DNA of 20,969 nt from a virus: positions 1 through 20,969 of IMG/VR virus record IMGVR_UViG_3300036845_000712. The stretch is one strand, 5' to 3'. The notes under the pieces are model-generated. The model worked only from the letters and a program-made list of their open reading frames with translations, did no database searches and was not told the origin of the DNA. Both the position numbers and the translations under genes were made by a program. Numbering within the stretch: the stretch's first letter is position 1; each line of letters opens with the position of its first letter. Of the stretch, positions 1,725 through 20,481 are shown piece by piece.

Positions 1725-1952
1725 AGAATATCCTTTTTTTTAGTTAGTATTTTCACACTGTATTTTGAATTCCATATATGGTCCAAACCAATTAGAGAGG
1801 CATTTATCGGCTCTTTACCATCGGGCGAATTGGTAGTGTTATTTGATGAGCATGTAATAATCATTGATGAATGGCATCCATCAGACATCCATCCAAATTT
1901 TCAATGTGATCTTGTGGATATTGAAATATTAAGTCCCTACAAAAAATCCTGA
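1716..1952 (+). CDS. Unknown 78-residue protein with hydrophobic N-terminus
   Basis: The ORF encodes 78 residues: a hydrophobic stretch (residues 5-21, RISFFLVSIFTLYFEF), then an acidic, aromatic C-terminal half containing LPSGELVVLFDEHVIIIDEW. A strong GAGGAG ribosome-binding site sits 6 bases before the ATG, the main reason for calling it. No minus-strand ORF fills 1725-1928. The gene starts inside the oppositely oriented lipoprotein gene (9-base overlap) and ends 24 bases inside the 3' end of the C1q-like fibre gene. It could be an exported or membrane protein. Family not recognised; a chance ORF remains possible. Confidence 0.45.
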   Translation: MFHRISFFLVSIFTLYFEFHIWSKPIREAFIGSLPSGELVVLFDEHVIIIDEWHPSDIHPNFQCDLVDIEILSPYKKS

Positions 1953-2549
1953 AAATGAAGAATATGCTGTAAACTGATTAGAACTTAATGCACTTCCGCC
2001 TATTGATACATCTTGCAAAGTAGTTGTGGATAATACTTGAACAGCCATGGTATCTCCTGCTGTCATAGGAACCATCCAAGAATTACTAATAATAAGTGAT
2101 GTATCTGATATAGCAGCTTCAGATTGACTAACTTGGCTTAAAATTTGAGAATATACACTTCCAAAAGAACTTACTACTAATTCACTTCCTGCTGAAAATG
2201 TGGAACCAGATTGAAATTCAATCATTGTGTTAAAAGAATAAAAACCAGTTGAAGGAGCTGTAAAAACACCTGTAGAAGTGTTATATGCGGTCCCATCATT
2301 TCTAACCGTGGAATCAAATACCACTTGATAAATCACAGTATTTCCTGTAACGTTACTTTTTGCACTACTGCAATAAGAATAAAAAGCTTTGGTAGAACTT
2401 CCACCTCCACCAGCAGCCCATTTTACACCATCTGCTTGGGCTGAATCGGCAGTTAAGACGAAAGTATTAGTACCGACAGGCAAAATAACATTATTTGTGC
2501 CATTTCCTGTTAACAGGCCACCTTTAGGGAGAATTCCTATATTCGACAT
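1929..2549 (-). CDS. Tail-fibre protein with C1q-like C-terminal domain
   Basis: 206 residues. Residues 11-46 match the 45-residue repeat module of the fibre gene at 4122-5210 (GLLTGNG... VGTNTFVLTADSAQAD against VLVGAG... VGTTGQVLTGASAADP). After a Gly/Ser hinge (48-52), residues about 53-205 look like a C1q/TNF jelly roll: VVFDSTVRNDGTAYNTSTG, then VFTAPSTGFYSF and a final FSGFFVGT strand. C1q-like heads form trimers at fibre tips and often bind receptors, so this is a good candidate for a receptor-binding tip. An AGGTGA site precedes the ATG. It is the last gene of the four-gene fibre locus. The C1q fold does not imply a eukaryotic origin. Confidence 0.7.
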   Translation of the reverse strand: MSNIGILPKGGLLTGNGTNNVILPVGTNTFVLTADSAQADGVKWAAGGGGSSTKAFYSYCSSAKSNVTGNTVIYQVVFDSTVRNDGTAYNTSTGVFTAPSTGFYSFNTMIEFQSGSTFSAGSELVVSSFGSVYSQILSQVSQSEAAISDTSLIISNSWMVPMTAGDTMAVQVLSTTTLQDVSIGGSALSSNQFTAYSSFSGFFVGT

Positions 2550-4121: not shown

Positions 4122-5210
4122 TTATGCTGCAAAATAGAATCCAGATATAGTTAATGTACCTGAAGTTTTAACTTGTGTTACTGTGAGATCAAAAGAAGCT
4201 GCGGCCGCATTACCTGTTCCACCTTCTTGTACTGATAATGTACATACAGAAGCTGCACTAGCGATTTTTCCATAGAAGTTTGCAGGCAAATTTGCAGTTT
4301 CTGCTGAAGCATCAATACCACTTCCATTAATTTGGATTTGTCCTGGTAGGGTGAATGCACCTGCTGCAACTGGAAGACTAACTCTCCAAACACCTGAACC
4401 CGTAGAGTTGGTAAACGCACTCCAAGTAATAGAAGCTGAAAAATGAACTACAGCGCCTACTTGATTATATCTTCCAAATTGCGTTGAATATGTCCAAGCC
4501 GAATCACCAGGAGTCGCAAGACTAAAAGCTGGTGTCCATGATGCTGCTGGAGTATAGGTGGCTGTTGTAAACGCTGAATTAGTATTACCAACAATAAGAC
4601 CTGTTAAATTGGAGTTAACACCCAAGGCGCCAAATGCTGGGTCAGCTCCTGTTGAACCTATAAGAACTTGTCCAGTTGTACCTGCGGCAGTAGCGGCAAT
4701 AGCCGAATTTCCTTCACCAAGCAATACACCATGAGCAGTTAACCCTGAGTTAGTTCCTAAAGCAGCAAAAGCTGGATCAGCAGCCGATGCACCAGTTAAA
4801 ACTTGTCCTGTGGTTCCAACAGCCAATTTTGTAATAGTTGTCGTACCAGCACCAACTAAAACTGCGTGATTGGTTAAACCTGTCAATGCTACTGTGGCGT
4901 TAGAACCAGAACCAGATGTAGTTGTGCTTCCAGAACCTTTTAAGTTTATATTTCCAGCTGTAGGAACTACCACAGTAGAGTCATCAGTTGTTAGAGTATC
5001 TAAAGATCCTGTAGATATATCTAAAAGTTCCCATACTCCTGCACCTGCATAAATATAAAAGGTGTAAGAGCCAACAACGCCTGTATAAACAATTTGACCG
5101 ATTTCGTAATTCGTTTGATTTGAATTAGGTGTATTTGCGAAATGAAGAGGAGGAGGAAGCACTGGAATCAGAGCTTGCCCAATCCCATAAACTTGAAACA
5201 TTTTCGACAT
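4122..5210 (-). CDS. Tail-fibre protein with 45-residue tandem repeats
   Basis: 362 residues, the first gene of the leftward fibre locus, with an AGGAG site before its ATG. The N-terminus (1-65) may attach to the tail. Residues 70-92 (LDTLTTDD... VPTAGNINLKG) echo the adaptor segment of the fibre gene at 2557-3774. Residues 112-201 are two tandem 45-residue repeats (LTNHAVLVGAG... and LTAHGVLLGEG..., both containing GTTGQVL and ADPAF), with a third decayed copy from 202. The C-terminal 130 residues (WTPAFSLATPGDSAWTYSTQ to the end) form a beta-rich head. Such repeats usually extend trimeric fibre shafts. No receptor can be inferred. Confidence 0.7.
   Translation of the reverse strand: MSKMFQVYGIGQALIPVLPPPLHFANTPNSNQTNYEIGQIVYTGVVGSYTFYIYAGAGVWELLDISTGSLDTLTTDDSTVVVPTAGNINLKGSGSTTTSGSGSNATVALTGLTNHAVLVGAGTTTITKLAVGTTGQVLTGASAADPAFAALGTNSGLTAHGVLLGEGNSAIAATAAGTTGQVLIGSTGADPAFGALGVNSNLTGLIVGNTNSAFTTATYTPAASWTPAFSLATPGDSAWTYSTQFGRYNQVGAVVHFSASITWSAFTNSTGSGVWRVSLPVAAGAFTLPGQIQINGSGIDASAETANLPANFYGKIASAASVCTLSVQEGGTGNAAAASFDLTVTQVKTSGTLTISGFYFAA
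4572..4877 (-). repeat. Tandem 135-base coding repeats in the fibre shaft
   Basis: Two full in-frame copies (4877-4743 and 4742-4608, read on the minus strand) plus a partial third copy to about 4572. They encode a 45-residue unit whose fixed positions are a GxG turn, GTTGQVL, ADPAF and AL. A related unit occurs in the N-terminus of the fibre gene at 1929-2549. Expansion or contraction by recombination would change shaft length in 45-residue steps. Confidence 0.75.
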
Positions 5211-5823: not shown

Positions 5824-6663
5824 ATGAAAAAAGAAAAATTGATAGCATGGGGATGTTTAATAGGTATACCGCTCTTCATCTTATGGGTATTCTGCTTCAA
5901 AATGATTTCTCCTGGATATGTGGGAGTAGTTGTAGATCTATTAGGCGACAATAAAGGCGTTGAATCAAAAGAATTGCATGTAGGCATGCACTGGATTGCA
6001 CCATGGAAATCAGTCTATCAGTTTCCAATCTTCGAACAAAATGACACCTGGGAGGGTGACCGTGAAGGATTCAATTTTCAAACATCCGAGGGTATGGCTG
6101 TATCTGCTGACATCGGCATCACCTACCATCTTAGGTCTGAGTCTATTCCTATTATCTTTCAGAGATACAGAAGAGGTATGGACGAGATCACTCATATTTT
6201 TATTAGGAACTATATTCGCGATGCTATTAATAAGTCCGCTTCACGTACGCGTATTGAAGATCTTTATAGCGGAAAAGAATCATTCTTCGAAGAAGTAGAA
6301 GCACATGTTAGACAGGATTTATCTCCTATAGGAATTGAATTGAGTAGAATTTATCTGATTGGGAGATTTCACTTTCCGCAGAATGTCATAGCCGCTTTAA
6401 ATTCAAAAATAGAAGCTATGCAACGCGCCCAGCAGAGAGAGAACGAATTGAGAGAGGCAGAAGCAGAGGCCAAGAAACAAATCGCCAAGGCGGATGGACA
6501 AGCGCGTTGCGTTATTGTCCAAGCGGAATCTGAATCTAAGGCTAACTTATTATTGTCTCGGTCTGTCACAGCGGAACTTATTCAATGGCAAGCGGTTCAA
6601 AAATGGGACGGTAAGCTTCCTTCTGTCACAAGCGGAGCAACACCTTTCATCCAGGTGAAGTGA
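5824..6663 (+). CDS. SPFH/prohibitin-like (Band 7) membrane protein
   Basis: 279 residues. An N-terminal membrane segment (about 7-27) is followed by an SPFH domain (about 28-190) that begins with the typical SPGYVGVVVDLLGD strand and carries GMHWIAPW. Residues 191-245 form an Ala/Glu/Lys/Arg-rich coiled coil (MQRAQQRENELREAEAEA), and the C-terminus has the prohibitin signature WDGKLPSVTSG. In bacteria and mitochondria such proteins form ring-shaped membrane scaffolds that regulate membrane proteases such as FtsH. In a phage this could protect or redirect host proteolysis or organise the membrane during infection. An AAGGA site precedes the ATG, and its stop overlaps the next start (TGATG). 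Confidence 0.85.
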   Translation: MKKEKLIAWGCLIGIPLFILWVFCFKMISPGYVGVVVDLLGDNKGVESKELHVGMHWIAPWKSVYQFPIFEQNDTWEGDREGFNFQTSEGMAVSADIGITYHLRSESIPIIFQRYRRGMDEITHIFIRNYIRDAINKSASRTRIEDLYSGKESFFEEVEAHVRQDLSPIGIELSRIYLIGRFHFPQNVIAALNSKIEAMQRAQQRENELREAEAEAKKQIAKADGQARCVIVQAESESKANLLLSRSVTAELIQWQAVQKWDGKLPSVTSGATPFIQVK

Positions 6664-7139
6664 TGCGATTGGTTCATTATGCGAATGAGAAATTTTCTCT
6701 TGAACCAAAAGAATATGCTCAATCTGAACTAAGCTGGCAGGCCAAACCAAATGGACTTTGGTTTAGTGTAGAAGGACCTTATGACTGGAAATGGTGGTGT
6801 ACTGGAGAAAACTTCAATCTTGAAAACCTCGCTGTTTCTTATGAATTAAAACTGAAGGAGAATGCAAAAATCCTCTATCTAGAAACCGAAACAGAAATAT
6901 TAGAAATGGCGGAAAAGTATCCTTTTAAAACTAGAACGTGGGATGCAGATTCAGACACATATCAGTTGAATTGGAATGACATTAAGAAAGAATATCAAGG
7001 GATTATCATTCCTCAATATCTCTGGGCTTGTCGTATGTCACAAAATAGTTGCTGGTATTATGGTTGGGATTGTGCGAGTGGTTGCATTTGGGATTTAGAT
7101 TGTATTGAAGAATTTAAATTAATGGAAAAAAATGAATGA
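6663..7139 (+). CDS. Conserved phage protein, possible ADP-ribosyltransferase-like fold
   Basis: 158 residues from the ATG at 6663 (TGATG overlap with the SPFH gene, AGGTGAAG site); a GTG at 6660 would add one residue. The sequence has an N-terminal LVHYAN strand, KPNGLWFSVEG, a Trp-rich DWKWWCTGENF stretch, then IIIPQYLWACR and WYYGWDCASGCIWDLD. This set of motifs recurs in phage and bacterial hypothetical proteins I have seen, but I cannot name the family. The order H-Y, then GLW-S, then a late acidic/aromatic motif recalls ADP-ribosyltransferases of the DarT/RNA-phosphotransferase type; that is inference only. Co-translation with the SPFH protein suggests a joint role. Confidence 0.6.
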   Translation: MRLVHYANEKFSLEPKEYAQSELSWQAKPNGLWFSVEGPYDWKWWCTGENFNLENLAVSYELKLKENAKILYLETETEILEMAEKYPFKTRTWDADSDTYQLNWNDIKKEYQGIIIPQYLWACRMSQNSCWYYGWDCASGCIWDLDCIEEFKLMEKNE

Positions 7140-7776
7140 TGAAATTTTATCTAAAAGATTAGATGGTATTGAACATCAATTAAAGTTTTTTGCTGATACG
7201 TATAAACATTTACATGACATATTTATACACGGTGTACATATAAAATTAGAGAAGTCTCTTTTAGAACCCACTCTTTCGGCATTAACAACTCAAATGAGAG
7301 AATTTAGTGCCTTGTATCAAAAGGTTAATGATGCTGTAAAGAACGATTCTGTTTTAGGGACTTTAGCATTCATGGCAAAAAGGCTTCACGAAATAGATAT
7401 AACTATCCAAGGAATAAAAGAAAATGGATTAAAGAAGAAAATCCAACTGGATTTCACCGTGGACGGATATGAAATGGTTAAAAGAAAACCTTTGGATATA
7501 GAAACTAACACTATTACACCAGAAGAAGCTTTGAAAAAACTGGTGGAATCTCTAGATGAAAGAGAGGGAATAGTGTTAATGCATAGATATGGTTTATTTG
7601 AAACACATTCTAAAACTTTGGTCGCGACAGGTAAAATAATAAAAGTAACTCCAGAAAGAGTTCGAGCTATACAAAATAAAGCGCTTAGAAAATGTAGAAT
7701 GCCATCAAGGAAAAAACTTTCAATGGCTATCACGCATCATGAATTGAAAAAAGATATTTTAGGAGAAGACGAATGA
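7132..7776 (+). CDS. Sigma-70 region 4-containing regulator
   Basis: 214 residues, starting 8 bases inside the previous gene. The first 100 residues are helical and probably coiled-coil (EHQLKFFADTYKHLHDIF). Residues about 132-192 match sigma-70 region 4: EEALKKLVESLDEREGIVLM, then HRYGLFE, TLVATGKIIKVTPERVRAIQ and NKALRKCR, the HTH that reads the -35 box in primary sigma factors. Regions 2 and 3 are absent, so it cannot act as a complete sigma factor. It may resemble phage co-activators or sigma appropriators that redirect host polymerase to late genes. The stop overlaps a possible 22-residue peptide start (ATGA). Confidence 0.8.
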   Translation: MNDEILSKRLDGIEHQLKFFADTYKHLHDIFIHGVHIKLEKSLLEPTLSALTTQMREFSALYQKVNDAVKNDSVLGTLAFMAKRLHEIDITIQGIKENGLKKKIQLDFTVDGYEMVKRKPLDIETNTITPEEALKKLVESLDEREGIVLMHRYGLFETHSKTLVATGKIIKVTPERVRAIQNKALRKCRMPSRKKLSMAITHHELKKDILGEDE

Positions 7777-12037: not shown

Positions 12038-14560
12038 TTAGTTGATTAATCTTCCGCCTTCACGCATCCAAAGGTTCATGGCATTAAGTTCCATGGGAGT
12101 TTGGTGCGTTGCTAACTGATTCATCAATGTGTCATCATAAGTCAATCCAATACGGAGATATTGCCCAAATTGAGCGCTATAGAAACGATACCATGCATAC
12201 TCTGAACCTGGAATATATATTTGACCATCAACAGGTGAAGTATTCCATATCCCCCCCGTAACATATGCGCTAAATCCAGTTGAATCGGTATTGTTCAGTG
12301 TAAAATTATTCGAGTTCACGACCGTAATGGTGTAAATAGCGGCATTAAGTTGCGTCATGCCTTGAACATTGGCAATATAGATAGAGGTTCCTGTAATCAA
12401 ACTATGGTCTGGACTCGTGATTTGACATGGATTTGCTTGTGTTGCATTGGTTATAAATCCGCAACCCTGCGAGGAATTGACAACTTCTTGATTCGTTGCA
12501 ATAAGATTAGCCTGCTCACCTAGATAAGAATTCACAAAAAGTTGAACCGTAATAGCTGAAATAGCAGGAGAGATAAGATTGGAGTCCATCTGAAAATCAA
12601 TAAATGAAAGTTTAAATTGTTTTCCAGCTCCTTGAAAAGGATTGAAATCCTTGCCTACGATATTCATTTTTGGAAATAGAGTTACTATTCCACCTCCGAG
12701 ATATACCGCTGATGTGATGTCGACGGCTTCATAATTTTGAGTAGCCTGATTCCATGTGCTTAAAGTGATCGTATTTGCATCTACAATAGTGACATTATAG
12801 ATCATATTATTCAGTCCAGGGTCAGTTCCACTCCAGATAGTGTTCTGAATATAGATGATCTCGCTATTGGCAAGATTGTGACTTGGAATAGTTATCTGTG
12901 TTGGATGCTGAGTAAAATCCACAGCCGTGATTGCTATTGTGGGAGCATATAGAGTAGTGACAGGTTGCGGCGTCTCCGCATCCGGATTATTATAAATGTT
13001 AATAAATCCTGCTTGCGTGCCCAATGCAACATAATCCACATATTGTTGATCGTCTACATTATCCCAACTTACATTGCTCTCCCAAAAAGTCGTTAAACTA
13101 TCCCAGGTGATGCCAAATTGGAACTGAGCCGGACCAAAACAAGTAATGGTATCTCGGAATTTCGCCCAGGTATTGTTTCTGTAGTTAAATAGGAGCACAG
13201 TATTTGGATATGACTGTGTTGCAGAGGCATTTGCTATGTCTAGATAATTCCAATAAACAAGTTCTTTCTCGAAGTCTCTAATTCCATGAACAAAATTAGG
13301 AGCTTGATTCTGAATTTCAAATCCAAACGCTTGCTCGGGTATCTGTTCATCCAGTCTCGTAACGCCATTCGCAGCAGCTTGTATAATACCTCTATCACTA
13401 ACTGCCATCACTCCCTGATCGAACACAATAGGACTATAAGTACCGACGGCGCCAAAATCGGAAGAAATTCGTTCAAAAATAAATGGAAGTCCATATTCTC
13501 CAATATAACGTAATTGCCAAGTAGAGTATTCAAAAAACACAATTAAAGTATTTCTAAAAAATGCCACGCTTACGATCGATTCATTTGTTGGAGCATCGAT
13601 GAAACCTCCTCTGCCAAATATATCAGAACGCCAGCCATTTGTTTGATCTGTTGGATCTCCTAATTGACTAAAACGACAGCGTGCAAAAAAGTTCGTGGCG
13701 CCTGTATATGTGCTAGCTGTAGGGCCTTCCCATGTATTCAAAGCAAGTAAACGACCATAATAAGGAATTAAAATTAGCGCTTGCCAAAGAGTTACAGTAG
13801 CGGTGAGAAGAGGTTGTAAATCAATCCAAGCGGAATTATTAAAATATCTAATTGGGTCGTAACTTGGAGCTACAAGGTCAATATTGTCATTAGTTACAAA
13901 AAAATAGCGAAGATCCGCCGTGGCTCCTTGAAAGTTTGCCGCCCAAAAGAAATCAGTATTTGTTCCTGTCCATGTAGTTCCGGAAACCAATTCTTGGAAG
14001 CCATTCACAAATTGATAGGCGTACTTAGTATCAAAAAAAACTGTGGCATCAATACCTAAAGTCGAAACATCTCTTTTTAATATTCCCATGACAGGAAGAG
14101 CCGGAAAGTAATTTATAGATATTGTAGTTGCATGTCCTGCACCAACAGTCGTTATCAAAGTTACATCGCCTGTCATGTAATTAATAGTTCCAGAATTTCC
14201 TGCCGTAGCATTAGTGAGAATTCCGTTTCCTTGATCAACAAATGGAGTTGCCAAAGTCGCTATGGTAATTCTAACGCTTCCAGGTTCAATTTGAGCATTT
14301 GGCTCAGGAGTAATGGAAAGTTTTGTATAGATATTAAATGTCCATGGAGATGCCGAACTATTTCCTATAGAAGCAGTCGTAAAAACACGACGAAGTCTTC
14401 CCATGGGAACTTCTCCATCACGTTTTTTTGTTCTATCACGGAAAACATAAGCGTTTTCTAAATCTGAATATGCCTCATTGGAAAGAAGCATCGGCTTCTT
14501 GTCTTGTGTAAGACCGCCTCCAGGATATCCTCCTATTAGAACTTGATGAAAGCCCGTCAT
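12038..14560 (-). CDS. Tail hub / DNA-stabilisation-like protein with two FCCH-like inserts
   Basis: 840 residues, the longest product here. The N-terminus (GGYPGGGLTQDKKPMLLSNE, then a Leu/Arg-rich ENAYVFRDRTKKRDG) and the following beta-propeller-like body (about 150-520, e.g. FRNTLIVFFEYSTWQLRYIG, then GVMAVSDRGIIQAAANGVTR) resemble the P22 gp10 tail-hub type. Two inserted small beta modules follow: residues 541-625 (ITAVDFTQHPTQITIPSHNL, ending YLGGGIVTL) and 702-772 (ITNATQANPCQITSPDHSLI, GMTQLNAAIYTITVVNSNNF). Such FCCH-like repeats often decorate phage tail proteins. An AGGTAA site precedes an ATG that directly follows the upstream TAA. Confidence 0.65.
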   Translation of the reverse strand: MTGFHQVLIGGYPGGGLTQDKKPMLLSNEAYSDLENAYVFRDRTKKRDGEVPMGRLRRVFTTASIGNSSASPWTFNIYTKLSITPEPNAQIEPGSVRITIATLATPFVDQGNGILTNATAGNSGTINYMTGDVTLITTVGAGHATTISINYFPALPVMGILKRDVSTLGIDATVFFDTKYAYQFVNGFQELVSGTTWTGTNTDFFWAANFQGATADLRYFFVTNDNIDLVAPSYDPIRYFNNSAWIDLQPLLTATVTLWQALILIPYYGRLLALNTWEGPTASTYTGATNFFARCRFSQLGDPTDQTNGWRSDIFGRGGFIDAPTNESIVSVAFFRNTLIVFFEYSTWQLRYIGEYGLPFIFERISSDFGAVGTYSPIVFDQGVMAVSDRGIIQAAANGVTRLDEQIPEQAFGFEIQNQAPNFVHGIRDFEKELVYWNYLDIANASATQSYPNTVLLFNYRNNTWAKFRDTITCFGPAQFQFGITWDSLTTFWESNVSWDNVDDQQYVDYVALGTQAGFINIYNNPDAETPQPVTTLYAPTIAITAVDFTQHPTQITIPSHNLANSEIIYIQNTIWSGTDPGLNNMIYNVTIVDANTITLSTWNQATQNYEAVDITSAVYLGGGIVTLFPKMNIVGKDFNPFQGAGKQFKLSFIDFQMDSNLISPAISAITVQLFVNSYLGEQANLIATNQEVVNSSQGCGFITNATQANPCQITSPDHSLITGTSIYIANVQGMTQLNAAIYTITVVNSNNFTLNNTDSTGFSAYVTGGIWNTSPVDGQIYIPGSEYAWYRFYSAQFGQYLRIGLTYDDTLMNQLATHQTPMELNAMNLWMREGGRLIN

Positions 14561-15175
14561 TTAGTTACCTATAGCAAACCAATAATAGCCCCACATATGA
14601 CCATCATCATTTTTTATAGAAAAACCTGAAGTGGTAGGAGTGGTAATTACCCACATGCTATTATCTCCAGGACTAGTCGACGCTCGTGTTCTAGTAACCT
14701 GAACATTGAAAAAATTTCTGGGAAATGTGACTGGAAATGTGACAGCTACTGTAGAAGATGATGTTTGGGCAACAAATCCCCATTGAAATAATATGCCTCC
14801 AGACCATGAATATCCATTTTGAGAGGCGCTATTTCCTGTTAACTGAGAAAGTCCTCCCATACCTGTAAGGGAATAAAGTTGAGTATCCCCGTTTGGAGGA
14901 ACATTAGGTGTTGTCACGGAATCAACAGCCAAAGTTCCTGGAACTCCACAAAATAATTGATTGTATCCAGTAACAGTAGTCACGCTGGTTTGAGGAACTT
15001 CATGAATAATAGTATGATATCCGGCAGGTCTTGAACCTGGTTGTCCGTTATTATTTACGTGGTCAACGTTAAGAGTTTGGAAAGTGCCATCAAGATTGTT
15101 TCTTATTGTAGCTTTTGTCTGACCTAATGAAGAACCGTCTGGAGGGTATCCTGGCGTATATGTTGGTATTGGCAT
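14561..15175 (-). CDS. Fibre-like protein with gp53-type C-terminal domain
   Basis: 204 residues. Residues 7-60 carry a phage-wide segment (TPGYPPDGSSLGQTKATIRN, then NNLDGTFQTLNVDHVNN). The C-terminal 85 residues look like the putative tail-fibre gp53-like domain: GYSWSGGILFQWGFVAQTSS, TVAVTFPVTFPRNFFNVQVT, GFSIKNDDGH and a terminal YYWFAIGN. This domain usually forms the tip of short fibres. It lies between the adaptor gene region and the tail hub, separate from the main fibre locus at 1929-5210. An AAAGGAA site precedes the ATG. Function as a short virion fibre is likely; target unknown. Confidence 0.65.
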   Translation of the reverse strand: MPIPTYTPGYPPDGSSLGQTKATIRNNLDGTFQTLNVDHVNNNGQPGSRPAGYHTIIHEVPQTSVTTVTGYNQLFCGVPGTLAVDSVTTPNVPPNGDTQLYSLTGMGGLSQLTGNSASQNGYSWSGGILFQWGFVAQTSSSTVAVTFPVTFPRNFFNVQVTRTRASTSPGDNSMWVITTPTTSGFSIKNDDGHMWGYYWFAIGN

Positions 15176-15184
15176 AGTATTCCT

Positions 15185-15319
15185 TTAAACTGCTACAGTT
15201 GCGATAGGTTGAACATCTTGAGGCCTGCGCAATTTTCGTTTAGCTTTTTCACTCATTTGAACTTTCAAAATAGATACAGGCTTTTTAAGTTTCTTTTCTT
15301 TTCCTTTTATAACTGTCAT
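15185..15319 (-). CDS. 44-residue basic micro-protein
   Basis: A short ORF encoding 44 residues, MTVIKGKEKKLKKPVSILKV followed by a Lys/Arg-rich middle (KAKRKLRRPQ) and a hydrophobic end. An AGGG sequence sits 6 bases before the ATG. It follows another micro-protein gene by 2 bases and precedes the gp53-like fibre gene, filling the gap with no spare bases. Strong positive charge suggests binding to DNA, RNA or an acidic virion surface. No family is recognised. Confidence 0.55.
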   Translation of the reverse strand: MTVIKGKEKKLKKPVSILKVQMSEKAKRKLRRPQDVQPIATVAV

Positions 15320-15321
15320 GA

Positions 15322-15438
15322 CTACCCTGTTGTTGATCTACCTACAAACGGACTTCCACCAAGTGGAATAGATTTGTTCGGCAATGGTTTAAGTTTTTTC
15401 TTTTTGATTGTTGGAGGCTTTTGCATTTTTTTCTTCAT
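15322..15438 (-). CDS. 38-residue Lys/Pro-rich micro-protein
   Basis: The ORF encodes 38 residues, MKKKMQKPPTIKKKKLKPLP then a Gly/Pro/Ser tail ending in STTG. Its ATG overlaps the TGA of the adaptor-like gene (ATGA), strong evidence for coupled translation. Repeated Lys and Pro with no hydrophobic core suggest an extended, charged peptide. It may be packed with DNA or sit at the head-tail junction. Family not recognised. The + strand frame over the same bases is a shadow. Confidence 0.55.
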   Translation of the reverse strand: MKKKMQKPPTIKKKKLKPLPNKSIPLGGSPFVGRSTTG

Positions 15439-16802
15439 ATTGAACCAAAGTTTGAACCCATTCCACCAAGACCATAATTAAAGGTAAGTTGATCGGTATA
15501 AATTGTATTAATGCGTTGTTGGCCTATCTGTGCGTATGTTCTCGTCTCGATTATGTCATAGCGTTCTTTAAGCATCTTATCGATGAAAATAACTCCATCA
15601 GAATCTAATCTTTCTTCGAATATCTTCTTAGATGCGCCTACAGCTAGTATTTCCCACCATTCCGAAAGTTCAGGATTTCCAGTCATGTCCGCTGCTATAA
15701 GGGCTTGAATAGGTTGACGATAGCATGTGAGCTCGATAGTGTAACCAGCATCTGGAGTAGGCGCTAGGGTAAATTGGTTCTGATAGAACATTATCGCTAA
15801 TGGGATAGATAACTTTTTCGGATTGTACTGAATCTGAATAGGTGTTCCAGAAGGAATAGGATCGGCGAATGTCAAACCTACAATTTGACCTGTTTGATAA
15901 TTAATTGTCGCATTGCCAGGGCTATTTGGTGTGGATGAAGCGTACTGTCTATAGTATGTCCATCCATAATTCTGATTTCCTGCATTAGAAGTTTGAAAGA
16001 TTTGAATTAAATTGCCTTGACCATCGTCAGTAACGTTTTGAGTCTGCCCTATTCCATTTGTTCCTATCACATTCGCTGTGATGAGAATATTTTGAACTCG
16101 GCTTTGTGGAAAGAATAGATTTTGATTATTTATAGGTCCTGGATCATTATTAACACTTCCAATGAGCGGAGCCGCTGTAGTGAATCCGTTATATGGTGAA
16201 GTAAACCAATCGCCTCCGGAAGTATACACGCCAAAACTGGTTGAATCGACATTTAGAGAAAAATTATTGGCATCAATGACCGTGATTATATAAGAATTTC
16301 CGTTTACATCCACCATGCCTCCCACATTGTTTAAAATGACTGTAATTCCAGTCACTAAACCATGGCTAGGCGCCGTAACAACGGCAGGATTAGCATTAGT
16401 TATATTTGTTATAAGACCTGTCTGGGAACCGGTAGTGCTATCACCAGAAGCAAAGGTAGTGAATTGTTGCCAATTGAAGTTAACTCCATAGAAATTCCAT
16501 GGGTCAGTGAATAGGCGCAGTTCTCTTTTAGAGCAATAGCAAGGTTGCTCAACAGTTATGTAAAGTTCGCTATTGAATGGATATACATCCTGACCAACAT
16601 TTGTCGTGAACGTATACATGTCCTTGAGTTTCAATGAACGGAATTTGGCCGGCAAATCATAGGAATAAAAACTATGCATCTGCTGCACGATATACGAATC
16701 CGTGACCTGAAACGAATTACTTGACCCCGTCAGCTTGCGTGTCTTAGTGACGGCATTCGCCAAAGTGGGATATAACGGAAATGTAGGTACAAATGTTGTC
16801 AT
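15435..16802 (-). CDS. Probable tail adaptor (gp4-like) with an FCCH-like insert
   Basis: 455 residues. The N-terminus (MTTFVPTFPLYPTLANAVTK) and C-terminus (ELSEWWEILAVGASKKIFEE, RLDSDGV, KERYDIIETRTYAQIGQQRI) resemble head-to-tail adaptor proteins of P22-like phages, with a helical C-terminal part. Residues 129-198 are an inserted beta module (LITNITNANPAVVTAPSHGL, GGMVDVNGNSYIITVIDANN, YTSGG) like the two copies in the tail hub. Two further variable stretches (about 205-330) are Asn/Gln/Thr-rich. The ATG overlaps the upstream stop (ATGA) and the stop overlaps the next start (ATGA). The adaptor assignment rests on position and general resemblance. Confidence 0.55.
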   Translation of the reverse strand: MTTFVPTFPLYPTLANAVTKTRKLTGSSNSFQVTDSYIVQQMHSFYSYDLPAKFRSLKLKDMYTFTTNVGQDVYPFNSELYITVEQPCYCSKRELRLFTDPWNFYGVNFNWQQFTTFASGDSTTGSQTGLITNITNANPAVVTAPSHGLVTGITVILNNVGGMVDVNGNSYIITVIDANNFSLNVDSTSFGVYTSGGDWFTSPYNGFTTAAPLIGSVNNDPGPINNQNLFFPQSRVQNILITANVIGTNGIGQTQNVTDDGQGNLIQIFQTSNAGNQNYGWTYYRQYASSTPNSPGNATINYQTGQIVGLTFADPIPSGTPIQIQYNPKKLSIPLAIMFYQNQFTLAPTPDAGYTIELTCYRQPIQALIAADMTGNPELSEWWEILAVGASKKIFEERLDSDGVIFIDKMLKERYDIIETRTYAQIGQQRINTIYTDQLTFNYGLGGMGSNFGSI

Positions 16803-17179
16803 AATAATGGTTGGTTATCAAATGCATCTTCTAGTGTCACCGTCGCTGTCCCTGGAGAGATTCCAGAGCCTGCCGGAACGGCAATACAAGGAATTTGAGG
16901 ATCTTGCACGTATATAAACGGATAAAAATTCAAACTGTCTACTGCTATTGTTACCGTATTAGGCGTAATAGAAATTATTAGCGCTTTTTGATTATTCAAC
17001 TGTATCATGCCATTAGGAGGAGGAATGCGAAAGCTTATCCACTCACCTATGGTAAAATTATGATTAGTAATAAATGCAACAATAGCAGTAGAAGCTTGAG
17101 TGATATTCGATATGTACTGCAAATTCGGTATAAATTCAGAACCGAATGGAGGCCCAAAATTTGAATTAGGAGCGCTCAC
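16799..17179 (-). CDS. Small FCCH-like virion protein, paralogue of the decoration-like protein
   Basis: 126 residues starting at GTG (17179), in a GTGA overlap with the upstream stop. Residues about 20-95 form one beta module (ISNITQASTAIVAFITNHNF, GMIQLNNQKALIISITPNTV). Residues 97-122 (IPCIAVPAGSG, LEDAFDNQ) match the end of the neighbouring 357-residue protein (SPAVCFPAGSG, LQDAFDNR). The two genes are therefore paralogues over this part; a tandem duplication with loss of the N-terminal half is the simplest explanation. It is likely a head or connector ornament. The motif similarity is visible directly; function is inferred. Confidence 0.6.
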   Translation of the reverse strand: MSAPNSNFGPPFGSEFIPNLQYISNITQASTAIVAFITNHNFTIGEWISFRIPPPNGMIQLNNQKALIISITPNTVTIAVDSLNFYPFIYVQDPQIPCIAVPAGSGISPGTATVTLEDAFDNQPLL

Positions 17180-17538
17180 AATACCGCCGTTGGTGTAAAC
17201 CTAACTCTTGAAACAGTCTCATAGCTGCGAGGAGTTCTTTGGCCACTAGCAGGTAATTCCATCGAATATCGTCTAACTTTCTTTTTTGTATTATTCAAAT
17301 GTCTAACAATTCCCATAGGAAGATCGCAAATCTCACCATGAATCATTTTGATCATTTGAATTGGTTCGCCTGGATATTTCCTATAAGCAAATTCCAACCA
17401 TCCACCTTGAGCATCAAGAAATTCAAACATGCCTGTGATGACTTTATCATCTTCTTTTCGCATCTTCTTAATAAGTTCATCCCTTTCTTGAGGAGGCAAT
17501 GTTTTTTTCGATTTTTTACCTAATTCTCTGACTTCCAT
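17176..17538 (-). CDS. Small charged virion-operon protein (120 residues)
   Basis: 120 residues. The N-terminus is Lys/Glu-rich helix (LGKKSKKTLPPQERDELIKK), the middle has DAQGGWLEFAYRKYPGEPIQ and ICDLPMGIVRHLNNTKKKVR, and the C-terminus is basic. No membrane segment is present. An AAGGAAAA site precedes the ATG, downstream of the hairpin at 17555-17585. The aromatic GGWLEFAYRKYPGEP segment is distinctive and recurs in hypothetical proteins beside phage capsid genes in my recollection, without a known role. It may be a head-completion protein. Confidence 0.55.
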   Translation of the reverse strand: MEVRELGKKSKKTLPPQERDELIKKMRKEDDKVITGMFEFLDAQGGWLEFAYRKYPGEPIQMIKMIHGEICDLPMGIVRHLNNTKKKVRRYSMELPASGQRTPRSYETVSRVRFTPTAVL

Positions 17539-17554
17539 TTTATTTTCCTTGTTT

Positions 17555-17587
17555 AGAGGAAGGAGACAAATTGCCTCCTTCCTTTTT
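17555..17587 (+). terminator. Intergenic hairpin with T-run facing the antisense direction
   Basis: A perfect 9-bp stem (AGGAAGGAG at 17557-17565, CTCCTTCCT at 17575-17583) with a 9-base loop is followed on the plus strand by TTTTT (17583-17587). Two more pairs (17556-17584 as G-U, 17555-17585) form only in + strand RNA. On the minus strand, the direction of all flanking genes, no T-run follows. It could block antisense transcription of the capsid genes, or act in minus-strand mRNA as a stabilising or processing hairpin. Confidence 0.4.
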
Positions 17588-17588
17588 G

Positions 17589-18662
17589 TTATGCATTTGT
17601 AATTGCGTTATTGAAATCAGCCTTGAACGCCATAACGACCATGTGAGCGGAAGCCGCTCCAACGACGTTAAGTCCAAGGTTCATGACATACTGTGCGCGA
17701 TTGTCAAAAGCATCCTGCAAGTTTGTTCCTGGAGGACTTTGTGGAATCGTTGCACTTCCATTGAAAGGAACGACGCCAGAACCCGCAGGAAAGCAGACTG
17801 CTGGAGATGCGCCGCCTGCAAAGCTTGCTGATAACGGATACACAAATGCAGTAAAGCCAGTTGTGTCGTAATCTAGAACGATAGACGACTCTGTTGCTGA
17901 ATTTGTGACCGTTAAGACGCGAGCTGCTCCAGGAGGATTTCCAAAAGCATCCTGTTCGGCTCTTCCAGTTAAATTACTCAACTGGGTCATGCCATAAGGA
18001 GTTGGAATCTGGAAATCGACAAGTTCGCCAGGCGTAAAGTCATTTGGTCTTCCAAAATAAACTTTAGCTTGTGTCGCTTGTGTTATGTACAGCACTGGCA
18101 ATTCTTTTGGGTACATAAAGCCTGGGTAGACTTTCTGATAAAAACCAGTTGTACCGCTTGCAATTGTCCAGCCTGCGCTAGCAGCGGTTGCAGCCATGCC
18201 AAGAGTAATGCTTACCCCGGCGGAAACTGCTGTTACTTTGAATAAAATACCGCTTAGTTCATGCGCTCCAACAACATTGATGAGTCTTACGAGATCACCA
18301 ACATTAATGCCTGTCGTTGTACCTGTTAAAACAACAAAAGTTGTTCCATTGACAGCCGTAATCGCTACTTTAGCGTAAGTAGGAGGACGAGTCTGATCAA
18401 TAAAGGTAAAACCTCCAGAAGTTCCAGAAGTCGCTGCGAGAGCATCTGTCGTTATTGTTTGACTCATACCAATGTAAGAGCCTTGAGCCATTGAACTAAA
18501 CCATTCCGATTCTAGCGCGGTAATGGCTGTAGTATCCCCCCAATTAGTTATATTCTTTACAATCACCCAATCAGGTTTATCCGTCATAGGAATATCGACG
18601 GCAACTGGAGTGTCAGGATTCGTATAATCCCACTTTCCAATAAATGAAAACGGTAATGCCAT
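17589..18662 (-). CDS. Decoration-like abundant virion protein with two FCCH-like modules
   Basis: 357 residues. It starts MALPFSFIGKWDYTNPDTPV; residues 97-170 (VAITAVNGTTFVVLTGTTTG, HELSGILFKVTAVSAGVSIT) and 190-276 (LYITQATQAKVYFGRPNDFT, GMTQLSNLTGRA) are two beta modules of the same general type. The end (289-322: VCFPAGSG, LQDAFDNRA) is shared with the 126-residue neighbour, and a hydrophobic tail (MNLGLNVVGAASAHMVVMAF) follows. The near-perfect AAGGAGGT ribosome-binding site predicts high expression. Directly after the major capsid gene, this suits a head-decoration protein or head fibre. Name inferred. Confidence 0.6.
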   Translation of the reverse strand: MALPFSFIGKWDYTNPDTPVAVDIPMTDKPDWVIVKNITNWGDTTAITALESEWFSSMAQGSYIGMSQTITTDALAATSGTSGGFTFIDQTRPPTYAKVAITAVNGTTFVVLTGTTTGINVGDLVRLINVVGAHELSGILFKVTAVSAGVSITLGMAATAASAGWTIASGTTGFYQKVYPGFMYPKELPVLYITQATQAKVYFGRPNDFTPGELVDFQIPTPYGMTQLSNLTGRAEQDAFGNPPGAARVLTVTNSATESSIVLDYDTTGFTAFVYPLSASFAGGASPAVCFPAGSGVVPFNGSATIPQSPPGTNLQDAFDNRAQYVMNLGLNVVGAASAHMVVMAFKADFNNAITNA

Positions 18663-18672
18663 ATTAACCTCC

Positions 18673-19620
18673 TTAAATACCTGTTGAGCGCAAGTTTTGA
18701 ATCCAGAGGTCGTTAGTTATGCATTGTCCTTGATAGAACGAGCAACCAGCTGTATGCCTTAACATGCACGGGTCGTTGTTATATCCAGGCGGTAGATAGA
18801 TAAAGCGAGCCTTACCACCTGCCTGCCACACAACTTTGTAAGCTTCTTTTGCAGCTACGAAGCAGTTAGCAATGTCATTCCCAAGCAAAGATTCGTTAGG
18901 TGTGACAGAGCCTTGCTCAGATACAAAGAAACGAACGTTATTAGCTCCACCAATCTCGGTAGACAATGTCTGAGAGATGTTTGGATACTGGAATTTCTTT
19001 GTAAAACCAGTCATGTTGTATAACACAGGAATCATACGTGTCGTCGCCATGCAACCATAGGCATCACCAATTGGCGATGTGCCAAAGCGCAGTTCGGCTT
19101 CCACGATATTCGTGATATACTCTCCAGAGTTGTTCTGAAGCACTGTAAAGACATCGTCCACATCTGAGATAGTCATCTCAGTAGGAATGTCGCCGTTCGT
19201 ACCGCCAACGCAGTTTATAATACTTGCAGAACTTTCCAGATTATCTCTCTGGAGGGCGTCCTGTGTTTCCCTGAGAGATTGTCCCAAACGAGCTGCTGCG
19301 CTATTAAGCACAGGATCTTCGTTGGTGATTGTTACCTGACGCGTCAACACGATATAAGTCGCGTAAACACGTACACGGCAATCGACATCAACGCGGTTAA
19401 GCTGTTGTGGCGGTGGGTTGTTTTGTGCATCGTCAAGCGGCACTTCAAACAAGTCAAGCCTGTCGTAGCGCGATTGACGATCAATAAAGCCTTGGTTATC
19501 CGGCAACTCCACAGGTGTAGCAAACAACTGGTGAATCAAGTTATGCTCTGGAGTTGACAGCAACTTAGCATTATATCGCTGCTGAATTTGAGGCGGCAGC
19601 GTACTAATTGATACTGTCAT
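18673..19620 (-). CDS. Major capsid protein, N4-gp56 type
   Basis: 315 residues. The N-terminus (LPPQIQQRYNAKLLSTPEHN, LIHQLFATPVELPDNQG) and the following IDRQSRYDRLDLFEVPLDD match the layout of N4-gp56-family major capsid proteins, an HK97-fold group. Later landmarks are VYATYIVLTRQVTITNEDPV, GTSPIGDAYGCMATTRMIPV (near residue 180) and LGNDIANCFVAAKEAYKVVW. It follows the scaffold gene directly and precedes a protein with a very strong ribosome-binding site. An AAGGG site lies 6 bases before the ATG. The protein would form the icosahedral shell. Confidence 0.8.
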   Translation of the reverse strand: MTVSISTLPPQIQQRYNAKLLSTPEHNLIHQLFATPVELPDNQGFIDRQSRYDRLDLFEVPLDDAQNNPPPQQLNRVDVDCRVRVYATYIVLTRQVTITNEDPVLNSAAARLGQSLRETQDALQRDNLESSASIINCVGGTNGDIPTEMTISDVDDVFTVLQNNSGEYITNIVEAELRFGTSPIGDAYGCMATTRMIPVLYNMTGFTKKFQYPNISQTLSTEIGGANNVRFFVSEQGSVTPNESLLGNDIANCFVAAKEAYKVVWQAGGKARFIYLPPGYNNDPCMLRHTAGCSFYQGQCITNDLWIQNLRSTGI

Positions 19621-19638: not shown

Positions 19639-20400
19639 CTAGGTCATTTCGGGAACCGAATTGGCCATAGCCGCATATCCATGCATTTCACGATAAAGGT
19701 CTTTCTTCATGGCATCAGTAAGCTTGAAAGCTTGGGCAATAGGCCGCTTATCCATAGCCATTGGAGACATGATCGCCTTCTCTGACTTTGCGATAGCTTT
19801 GTCTACTTCCTTCTCTCTCCTACTTTCCTTTGCTGTTTGGGATAAACCCATCGCTTTGATGTATTTGTAGCTTTGGACTCCGATCTTATATGGGTCTTTT
19901 GACTCCGCAATCGTAGCCGCCAATTCCGGTTCCCTTTCTTCTAATGTTGATAAAGTTTCAGGATTGACGATCTCGGAGAAATCTGAATATTGACGATTCA
20001 AGCGATCCATGAACTGATTATCTTGTTCTTTCTTAAGGGCTTTTTGCACCTCTTGACGAACAAGTTCTTCGGCGTTTTTTAGAACCTTCTGAGTATTTCT
20101 CTCAGCTAGCCTTTTGACTTTTCCCAAAGGAATGAATTCTTCATCACCGATTTTATCAAACTCATCGATCTCTTGTCTTACAGGTGCATTATTGGCAAGT
20201 TGTGCTTGCATTATCTGCATCTGATTATCTCGCAATTGTTTCAGTTCTCTTTCGAGTTCGGCATTCTTAAGACGCATTGCTTTCAAATGCTGGTTTGTTA
20301 CCGGCTCTTGATTTTTTTGCGTTTCATTCACTTCATTGACTTGGTTTTGTTCAGGAGGCGCTACCTCTTGGACTTCGCTGTTTTGAACTTCTTCAGTCAT
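19639..20400 (-). CDS. Scaffolding protein candidate
   Basis: 253 residues from the ATG at 20400, preferred over a GTG 42 bases upstream because AAGGAAATTC lies just before it. The N-terminus is acidic and disordered (MTEEVQNSEVQEVAPPEQNQ). Residues about 35-75 form a coiled coil (HLKAMRLKNAELERELKQLR), followed by FDKIGDEEFIPLGKVKRLAE and more charged helix, and a C-terminal helix ending NSVPEMT. No catalytic residues are seen. An acidic N-terminus, a coiled coil and a position just before the capsid gene are what scaffolds show. Assignment is by composition and position. Confidence 0.7.
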   Translation of the reverse strand: MTEEVQNSEVQEVAPPEQNQVNEVNETQKNQEPVTNQHLKAMRLKNAELERELKQLRDNQMQIMQAQLANNAPVRQEIDEFDKIGDEEFIPLGKVKRLAERNTQKVLKNAEELVRQEVQKALKKEQDNQFMDRLNRQYSDFSEIVNPETLSTLEEREPELAATIAESKDPYKIGVQSYKYIKAMGLSQTAKESRREKEVDKAIAKSEKAIMSPMAMDKRPIAQAFKLTDAMKKDLYREMHGYAAMANSVPEMT

Positions 20401-20481
20401 GAATTTCCTTTTGTTTTGTGGTCGGCTAGTCCCACGGTTCACGCCGTAGCGAATGGCTAATTCGCCTTGTATACGCCTTTC

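What the first reader, a model, noticed from the sequence alone, without database searches (positions are those of the whole stretch)
12245..18374. One small beta module spread across four neighbouring virion genes
Modules with the pattern I(T/S)xxTxAxP..V....H.(L/F)..G..(V/I).....(G)M..LN...Y.(I/V)T(V/I)xx(A/N)(N)xFxL....S..F..Y..GG occur twice in the tail hub (12245-12457, 12686-12940), once in the adaptor-like protein (16209-16418), as the bulk of the 126-residue protein (16799-17179) and twice in the decoration-like protein (17835-18095, 18153-18374). FCCH-like repeats are known in phage proteins, but reuse in hub, adaptor and decoration proteins of one phage suggests a mobile surface module spreading by recombination.
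Basis: partly seen in the sequence, partly recalled or inferred. Interest (0 to 1): 0.7.

Follow-up and report, generated by a model that had tools for sequence, protein, structure and literature searches.

The report
FCCH-like beta module in podovirus virion genes
Four neighbouring virion genes of an uncultivated short-tailed phage really do carry copies of one small beta-barrel domain, already known from the ubiquitin-activating enzyme E1 and from other phage tails; most copies sit in old, vertically inherited positions, but those in the tail adaptor and the nozzle's N-terminal (platform) domain come and go between close relatives like exchangeable cassettes.

Summary
Six copies of one ~70-residue domain lie at essentially the stated coordinates, in the tail nozzle (two), adaptor (one), a 126-aa protein (one) and the gene next to the capsid gene (two). 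The domain is Pfam E1_FCCH (PF16190). An iterated profile finds 462 copies in 160 related loci, all in these four genes and none in about 2,300 other ORFs. Structure predictions for nozzle and dec match ubiquitin E1 FCCH domains.

Recent spread inside one genome is not supported: 453 of 458 modules are nearest to the same gene slot of another phage. hubB, hubC, p126, decN and decC are inherited vertically. The adaptor and nozzle-platform slots are mobile: adaptors occur with and without the module among close relatives (10 changes on the tree). Filled alleles share a junction residue, empty alleles are clean, and filled state is unlinked to most of the genome, so a cassette seems to move by recombination between phages. 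Platform modules sit at three or more sites, adaptor modules at two.

Likeliest role, inferred: externally displayed accessory domain, as in the T1 tail tube protein, probably for adsorption. The domain and its mosaicism in phages are known; the four-gene, polymorphic usage is a new instance.

The parts
12038..14560 (-).
   Evidence: phrog_3287 3e-19; AF2 model pLDDT 73, pTM 0.76; Foldseek to solved podovirus nozzles Pa223 2e-13, SU10 2e-12, VP1 6e-12, T7 1e-8, P22 1.6e-4
12245..12457 (-). Module hubC (aa 702-772), E1_FCCH-like, conserved slot in near relatives
   Evidence: Pfam PF16190 2.6e-10; UBA6 6e-5 by phmmer; vertical, Mantel r 0.76; no module detected at this slot in several distant relatives
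12683..12934 (-). Module hubB (aa 543-626), long-loop variant, conserved slot
   Evidence: HMM 2.9e-21; non-circular HMM 1.4e-12; vertical, Mantel r 0.86
14099..14353 (-). Nozzle platform-type beta domain (D.GNG.L...GTINY.TG); carries 0, 1 or 2 inserted modules in relatives, none here
   Evidence: Insert sites; homologous to the adaptor beta domain, hhalign prob 95, E 5e-8 against control prob 0.2
15435..16802 (-). Adaptor-like protein, 455 aa, module-filled form (about 382 aa when empty)
   Evidence: Weak Pfam SU10_adaptor 0.0028, below cut-off; position before the nozzle; no adaptor chain found in the PDB by profile
16197..16427 (-). Inserted segment SQTG-module-WFTS between GTTG and PYNG; module proper 16206-16415
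   Evidence: Absent in relatives that read ...GTTG|PYSG...; Pfam PF16190 2.1e-9
15810..16109 (-). Adaptor beta domain homologous to the nozzle platform domain
   Evidence: hhalign prob 95, E 5e-8
16799..17179 (-). p126, 126 aa: one module (16907-17116) plus a PAGSG...DAFDN tail; paralogue of the dec C-terminal half
   Evidence: BLASTP to dec 33% over 130 aa, E 1e-14; vertical, Mantel r 0.91
17589..18662 (-). dec, 357 aa virion-like protein next to the capsid gene, two modules; exact role not established
   Evidence: AF2 pLDDT 85.8; Foldseek PDB to UBA6/UBA1 FCCH prob 1.00; closest viral models are uncharacterised
17835..18095 (-). Module decC (aa 190-276)
   Evidence: HMM 3.4e-18; hhalign prob 98.5 to nozzle/adaptor modules
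18138..18365 (-). Module decN (aa 100-175), most diverged copy
   Evidence: HMM 9e-15; non-circular 8e-7, hhalign prob 98.5; A2 profile hits T1 tail tube protein 0.0014 over model positions 104-183
18673..19620 (-). Major capsid protein (context, no module)
   Evidence: phrog_1357 5e-19
19639..20442 (-). Scaffold-like protein (context, no module)
   Evidence: Position and composition only; no family hit

Best explanation
The repeated unit is a phage version of the E1 FCCH beta-barrel domain, used as an accessory domain set into virion proteins. SHOWN: six copies in four genes. Five slots (hubB, hubC, p126, decN, decC) are old duplications inherited with their genes. Two kinds of slot vary: the adaptor loop, and loops at or in the nozzle platform beta domain. 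In the adaptor, one filled haplotype (module plus the following PYNG) and the clean ancestral empty form segregate among close relatives largely independently of other genes; the simplest reading is that the module region moves by homologous recombination through conserved flanks. The platform carries diverged modules at several sites. INFERRED: the domain is displayed on the outside of the tail and of the dec protein, as the T1 tail tube protein displays its domain, and adds weak contacts with host surface glycans or proteins, or with fibres. It is probably dispensable for assembly of adaptor and platform, because natural relatives lack it there.
For: Family. Fold: dec and nozzle models match UBA6/UBA1 FCCH (7pyv rmsd 1.4 over 85 columns, 34% identity). 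Vertical slots: Mantel r 0.76-0.91 and 453 of 458 nearest neighbours in the same slot. Mobile slots: platform modules r 0.14, p 0.2; adaptor presence 10 changes, single clade rejected p 6e-5; PYNG in 20 of 20 filled against 0 of 22 empty alleles of the shallow clade; filled state concordant with the adaptor part after the site (p 0.005) but not with the part before it (p 0.61), the nozzle (0.52) or p120 (0.47). Display: the module profile hits T1 tail tube protein residues 22-89, described as an outward Ig-like domain at 16-94 (PMC11945409). [quoted passage not shown]
Against: No experiment shows display, binding or dispensability. Some 70 columns resolve few deep forks. Adaptor-site-1 module monophyly is neither proven nor rejected (p 0.25). 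For adaptor modules without two outliers the module-backbone correlation is weak but significant (r 0.33, p 0.004), so part of the history is vertical. About ten linkage tests were run, so p 0.0045 is near the edge after correction, and dec also gives p 0.04. Loci were fetched with this window's nozzle and capsid proteins, which biases sampling. The adaptor name rests on a sub-threshold Pfam hit and gene position.
Confidence: 0.66

Rival explanations
1. The modules are rigid structural spacers or inter-subunit staples that stabilise the tail and head; they have no adsorption role.
For: SU10 nozzle domains stabilise the tail by contacts between neighbours (PMC9509320). Five slots are strictly conserved and co-evolve with their backbone. 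decC is more conserved than its protein backbone (0.91 against 0.84).
Against: Adaptor and platform modules are absent from close relatives with otherwise similar proteins, and platform modules are interchangeable with diverged versions at several sites, which is odd for a staple.
Confidence: 0.35
2. One reading: a mobile module recently spread by recombination between genes of the same genome.
For: hubC and the adaptor copy are 51% identical over 79 aa including the TSPxxG flank. Platform modules of L039, L041 and L149 nest among adaptor modules (98/90). The second p126 module of L137/L160 groups with the site-2 adaptor modules (100/99).
Against: No own-genome closeness for adaptor-hubC (p 0.78), adaptor-hubB (0.88) or decN-decC (0.63); same-slot copies elsewhere are 77-95% identical against at most 50% in the own genome. 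The cross-gene joins lie in relatives, are old (about 60% identity or less), and long branches are involved.
Confidence: 0.08
3. One ancient adaptor insertion followed only by repeated precise losses, without recombination between phages.
For: Adaptor site-1 modules may be one clade (AU p 0.25), and parsimony cannot tell gain from loss.
Against: Empty alleles nested among filled ones have the clean ancestral sequence and never keep the filled-haplotype N (0 of 22). Filled state is unlinked to the adaptor N-part and to most other genes.
Confidence: 0.15
4. The similarity is chance or convergence of small T/N/G-rich beta proteins.
For: Direct comparisons of decN and some cross-pairs are near chance.
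Against: Profiles, non-circular HMMs, hhalign 96-99.6, no hits in about 2,300 other ORFs including other T/N/G-rich fibre proteins, and structure matches.
Confidence: 0.02

Closest known systems
Pfam PF16190 E1_FCCH; first catalytic cysteine half-domain of human UBA1/UBA6 (PDB 2v31, 7sol, 7pyv)
   Same: Same sequence family (PDB profile search 5e-13) and same predicted fold
   Different: No adenylation or catalytic-cysteine domains here; the module sits in virion proteins. [quoted passage not shown]
FCCH-annotated nozzle/stabilisation proteins of HTVC010P, Vibrio phages 1.185.O and MZH0603, Xanthomonas CP2
   Different: In the outgroup stretches examined the module was found in one gene only; here it is also in the adaptor, p126 and dec
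T1 tail tube protein gp41 outward domain (PDB 9l0f)
   Same: Module profile matches residues 22-89, the domain the authors call Ig-like (16-94), set into a beta-sandwich protein
   Different: Siphovirus tube, one copy per subunit; similarity weak (E 8e-4)
Promiscuous Ig-like domains on phages (Fraser et al. 2006, cited in PMC8718954) and phage domain mosaicism (Smug et al. 2023, PMC10684548)
   Same: Small beta domains added to otherwise conserved virion proteins and shuffled between phages
   Different: FCCH family, not Ig; the 2023 main text does not mention FCCH; here four adjacent genes are used at once with segregating filled and empty alleles
Endosialidase beta-barrel domain (Pfam PF12195; PDB 1v0e)
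   Same: Weak profile similarity (0.00042 to the adaptor; PDB 0.036)
   Different: Below cut-offs; its glycan-binding role (own knowledge) is only a lead for this module

Membership tests
Pfam E1_FCCH (PF16190) domain family | Profile match above the gathering score | tested here: met
   Met for hubC (40.7) and adaptor (37.7 against 29.5 bits); not met individually for p126 (18.1), hubB, decN and decC, which join through profiles of relatives
Pfam E1_FCCH (PF16190) domain family | FCCH fold | tested here: met
   AF2 plus Foldseek for dec and nozzle: UBA6/UBA1, prob 1.00; adaptor and p126 were not modelled
Ubiquitin-activating enzyme E1 | Adenylation domains and catalytic cysteine | tested here: not met
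   Only the roughly 70-residue segment of Ube1 matches, far below cut-off (19.8 against 750 bits)
Podoviral nozzle protein (T7 gp12 / P22 gp10 type) | Nozzle fold | tested here: met
   Foldseek 2e-13 to 1e-7 against several solved nozzles; nozzle model confidence moderate
Podoviral adaptor protein (SU10 gp11 type) | Adaptor sequence profile or fold | tested here: inconclusive
   SU10_adaptor 18.5 against 27 bits; no PDB profile hit; not modelled
Capsid decoration protein (dec) | Binds the outer capsid surface | not testable with these tools
   Only gene position next to the capsid gene; closest structures uncharacterised
Promiscuous accessory domain of virion proteins | Presence/absence within otherwise alignable proteins | tested here: met
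   Adaptor 20 filled, 53 empty, 3 at another site; nozzle platform 0, 1 or 2
Promiscuous accessory domain of virion proteins | Displayed on the virion surface and non-essential | not testable with these tools
   Analogy with T1 gp41 only
   At most 50% within the genome against 77-95% same-slot elsewhere

The most novel reading that the evidence does not exclude
Phages hold a large, freely exchanging pool of FCCH modules that hop between virion genes and between phages as filled/empty cassettes, and the FCCH domain of eukaryotic ubiquitin E1, which recent literature treats as eukaryote-specific, was recruited from such a pool.
Probability: 0.15. Interest if true: 0.65.

Novelty: new member of a known kind. 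Interest (0 to 1): 0.42.

Why it matters
It gives a natural experiment: close relatives with and without the same surface-type domain at the same adaptor loop, and with 0, 1 or 2 copies on the nozzle platform, so the effect on adsorption can be tested by comparing or deleting one short cassette. It also extends the known mosaicism of phage receptor-contact proteins to adaptor and nozzle, and shows that FCCH is a common phage virion domain rather than a eukaryotic speciality.

Tried and rejected
Chance or low-complexity similarity: rejected by profiles, non-circular HMMs and absence from other ORFs.
Recent intragenomic copying: rejected for the window by nearest-neighbour and own-genome permutation tests.
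Adaptor and platform modules as alternatives (one excludes the other): not seen; 4 of 13 site-1-filled genomes also have a platform module.
Coupling of the adaptor module to the neighbouring fibre-like gene 14561-15175: no signal (p 0.14).
Literature on FCCH in phage virions: none found in searches, beyond annotation names in GenBank records; an endosialidase beta-barrel search gave one unrelated preprint.
PDB sequence search for the adaptor backbone gave nothing useful.
Host: only two bacterial MAG contigs carry the capsid gene, from different phyla (Verrucomicrobia, Acidobacteria), so host is undecided.
A first genome search with a versioned accession failed and was repeated.
Full report
WHAT THE WINDOW IS. 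The window is the whole of a virus record of 20,969 bases, which may itself be a fragment: it belongs to a short-tailed phage group with records of about 35-40 kb in many environments. Reading the minus strand from high to low coordinates, the virion genes are: scaffold-like 19639-20442, capsid protein 18673-19620 (phrog_1357), 'dec' 17589-18662, a 120-aa protein 17176-17538, 'p126' 16799-17179, an adaptor-like protein 15435-16802, a fibre-like protein 14561-15175, and the nozzle 12038-14560. No cultured phage in the collection is close.

THE OBSERVATION. Direct comparison of the six segments gives strong pairs: hubC-adaptor z 25, p126-decC z 14, hubB-hubC z 10. Others are weak, and decN is marginal. 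Pfam names the module E1_FCCH in nozzle and adaptor above its cut-off. A profile started from the three clearest copies and iterated over 2,654 unique ORFs of 160 loci finds 462 copies, every one in nozzle, adaptor, p126 or dec, and none in the other roughly 2,300 ORFs. A profile built only from nozzle and adaptor modules still finds hubB, p126 and decN; decC needs p126 as a bridge; hhalign links all groups at probability 96-99.6. A module profile finds human UBA1 and UBA6 in the PDB at E 5e-13. The dec and nozzle models both match E1 FCCH domains, 7pyv with rmsd 1.4 over 85 columns at 34% identity. A Pfam search of whole related records finds the family only in ORFs of the sizes of these genes.

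ANATOMY IN RELATIVES. dec has two modules in nearly all relatives and p126 one (two in L137 and L160). The nozzle has hubB, then hubC in the nearer relatives, and 0, 1 or 2 extra modules in its N-terminal platform region. The adaptor comes in two forms: about 459 aa (open frame) with the module and about 382 aa without.

THE ADAPTOR CASSETTE. The empty form reads ...GTTG|PYSGFTTA...; the filled form reads ...GTTG-SQTG-module-WYSS-PYNGFTTA.... On an adaptor tree built without the module the filled state needs 10 changes, and one filled clade is rejected (p 6e-5). All 20 filled alleles have PYNG, while none of 22 empty alleles in the shallow clade has it. Empty alleles lying among filled ones therefore look like the untouched ancestral site, not like deletions. 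Filled state is concordant with the adaptor part after the site (p 0.005) but not with the part before it (p 0.61), the nozzle (0.52) or p120 (0.47); dec gives 0.04. The simplest reading is that one inserted haplotype moves between phages by homologous recombination, with a breakpoint near the site. A second, independent adaptor site is used in L133, L150 and L130.

THE PLATFORM. Nozzle N-terminal modules sit at three or more positions: before the PGSV strand (L025, L033, L037, L044), in the loop before GTINY (L048, L060, L063, L071, L075), and elsewhere (L047). Their identity does not follow the nozzle backbone (Mantel r 0.14, p 0.2), unlike hubB 0.86, hubC 0.76, p126 0.91, decN 0.79 and decC 0.85. 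The adaptor and the platform share a homologous beta domain with a D.GNG.L...GTINY.TG motif (hhalign prob 95 against 0.2 for a control), so similar carrier regions receive similar modules.

In the module tree and by nearest neighbour, 453 of 458 modules are closest to the same slot of another phage. Window copies are 77-95% identical to the best same-slot copy elsewhere and 26-50% to the best copy in their own genome. Own-genome pairs are not closer than shuffled ones for adaptor-hubC (p 0.78), adaptor-hubB (0.88), decN-decC (0.63) or platform-hubC (0.33). The small effects for hubB-hubC and p126-decC (one percentage point) are as expected from shared ancestry. Cross-gene joins exist only in relatives: three platform modules inside the adaptor clade, and the second p126 modules with site-2 adaptors. 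With 70 columns and long branches these are leads, not proof. Module exchange is real, but the spread across these four genes is old. p126 and decC share a longer segment including the DAFDN tail, so p126 is a gene-level paralogue of the C-terminal half of dec.

LIKELY FUNCTION. Nothing here shows function. Leads: the module profile matches residues 22-89 of the T1 tail tube protein, where the authors describe an outward Ig-like domain at 16-94 (PMC11945409). Removing the analogous Ig domain of lambda gpV lowers activity 100-fold without stopping tail formation (PMC8718954). [quoted passage not shown] The endosialidase beta-barrel is a weak relative. I favour an outward accessory contact domain; a stabilising spacer is the main rival, as SU10 nozzle domains do that (PMC9509320).

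LIMITS. Trees rest on 70 columns or on quick searches. Loci were chosen by similarity to this window. The group compositions for tests were set after seeing the data. Adaptor and dec names are not proven. The eukaryotic link is domain homology only; its direction was not tested.

Noticed in passing
window 5824-6663 (+): A phage-encoded SPFH/Band 7 (prohibitin-like) membrane protein, Pfam 2e-29, near a sigma-70 region 4 protein (7132-7776)
   Followed up: partly
window 1929-2549 (-): Probable fibre/tip protein with a C1q-type domain (Pfam 2e-10)
   Followed up: partly
window 14099-14353 and 15810-16109: Nozzle platform domain and adaptor share a homologous beta domain (GTINY.TG motif)
   Followed up: yes
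L148 about 4680-4960: The capsid gene is interrupted by about 275 bases that look like a small group I intron; an Rfam gathering search found no match
   Followed up: partly
L023 11836-11840; L077 961-965: Nozzle gene split into two ORFs by an in-frame stop in or after hubB; real or assembly error not tested
   Followed up: no
L138 2568-4728: Two tandem copies of the dec gene, each with two modules
   Followed up: no
L171, L172: Capsid gene relatives (95% and 76%) in contigs binned as Verrucomicrobia and Acidobacteria; host hints only
   Followed up: no
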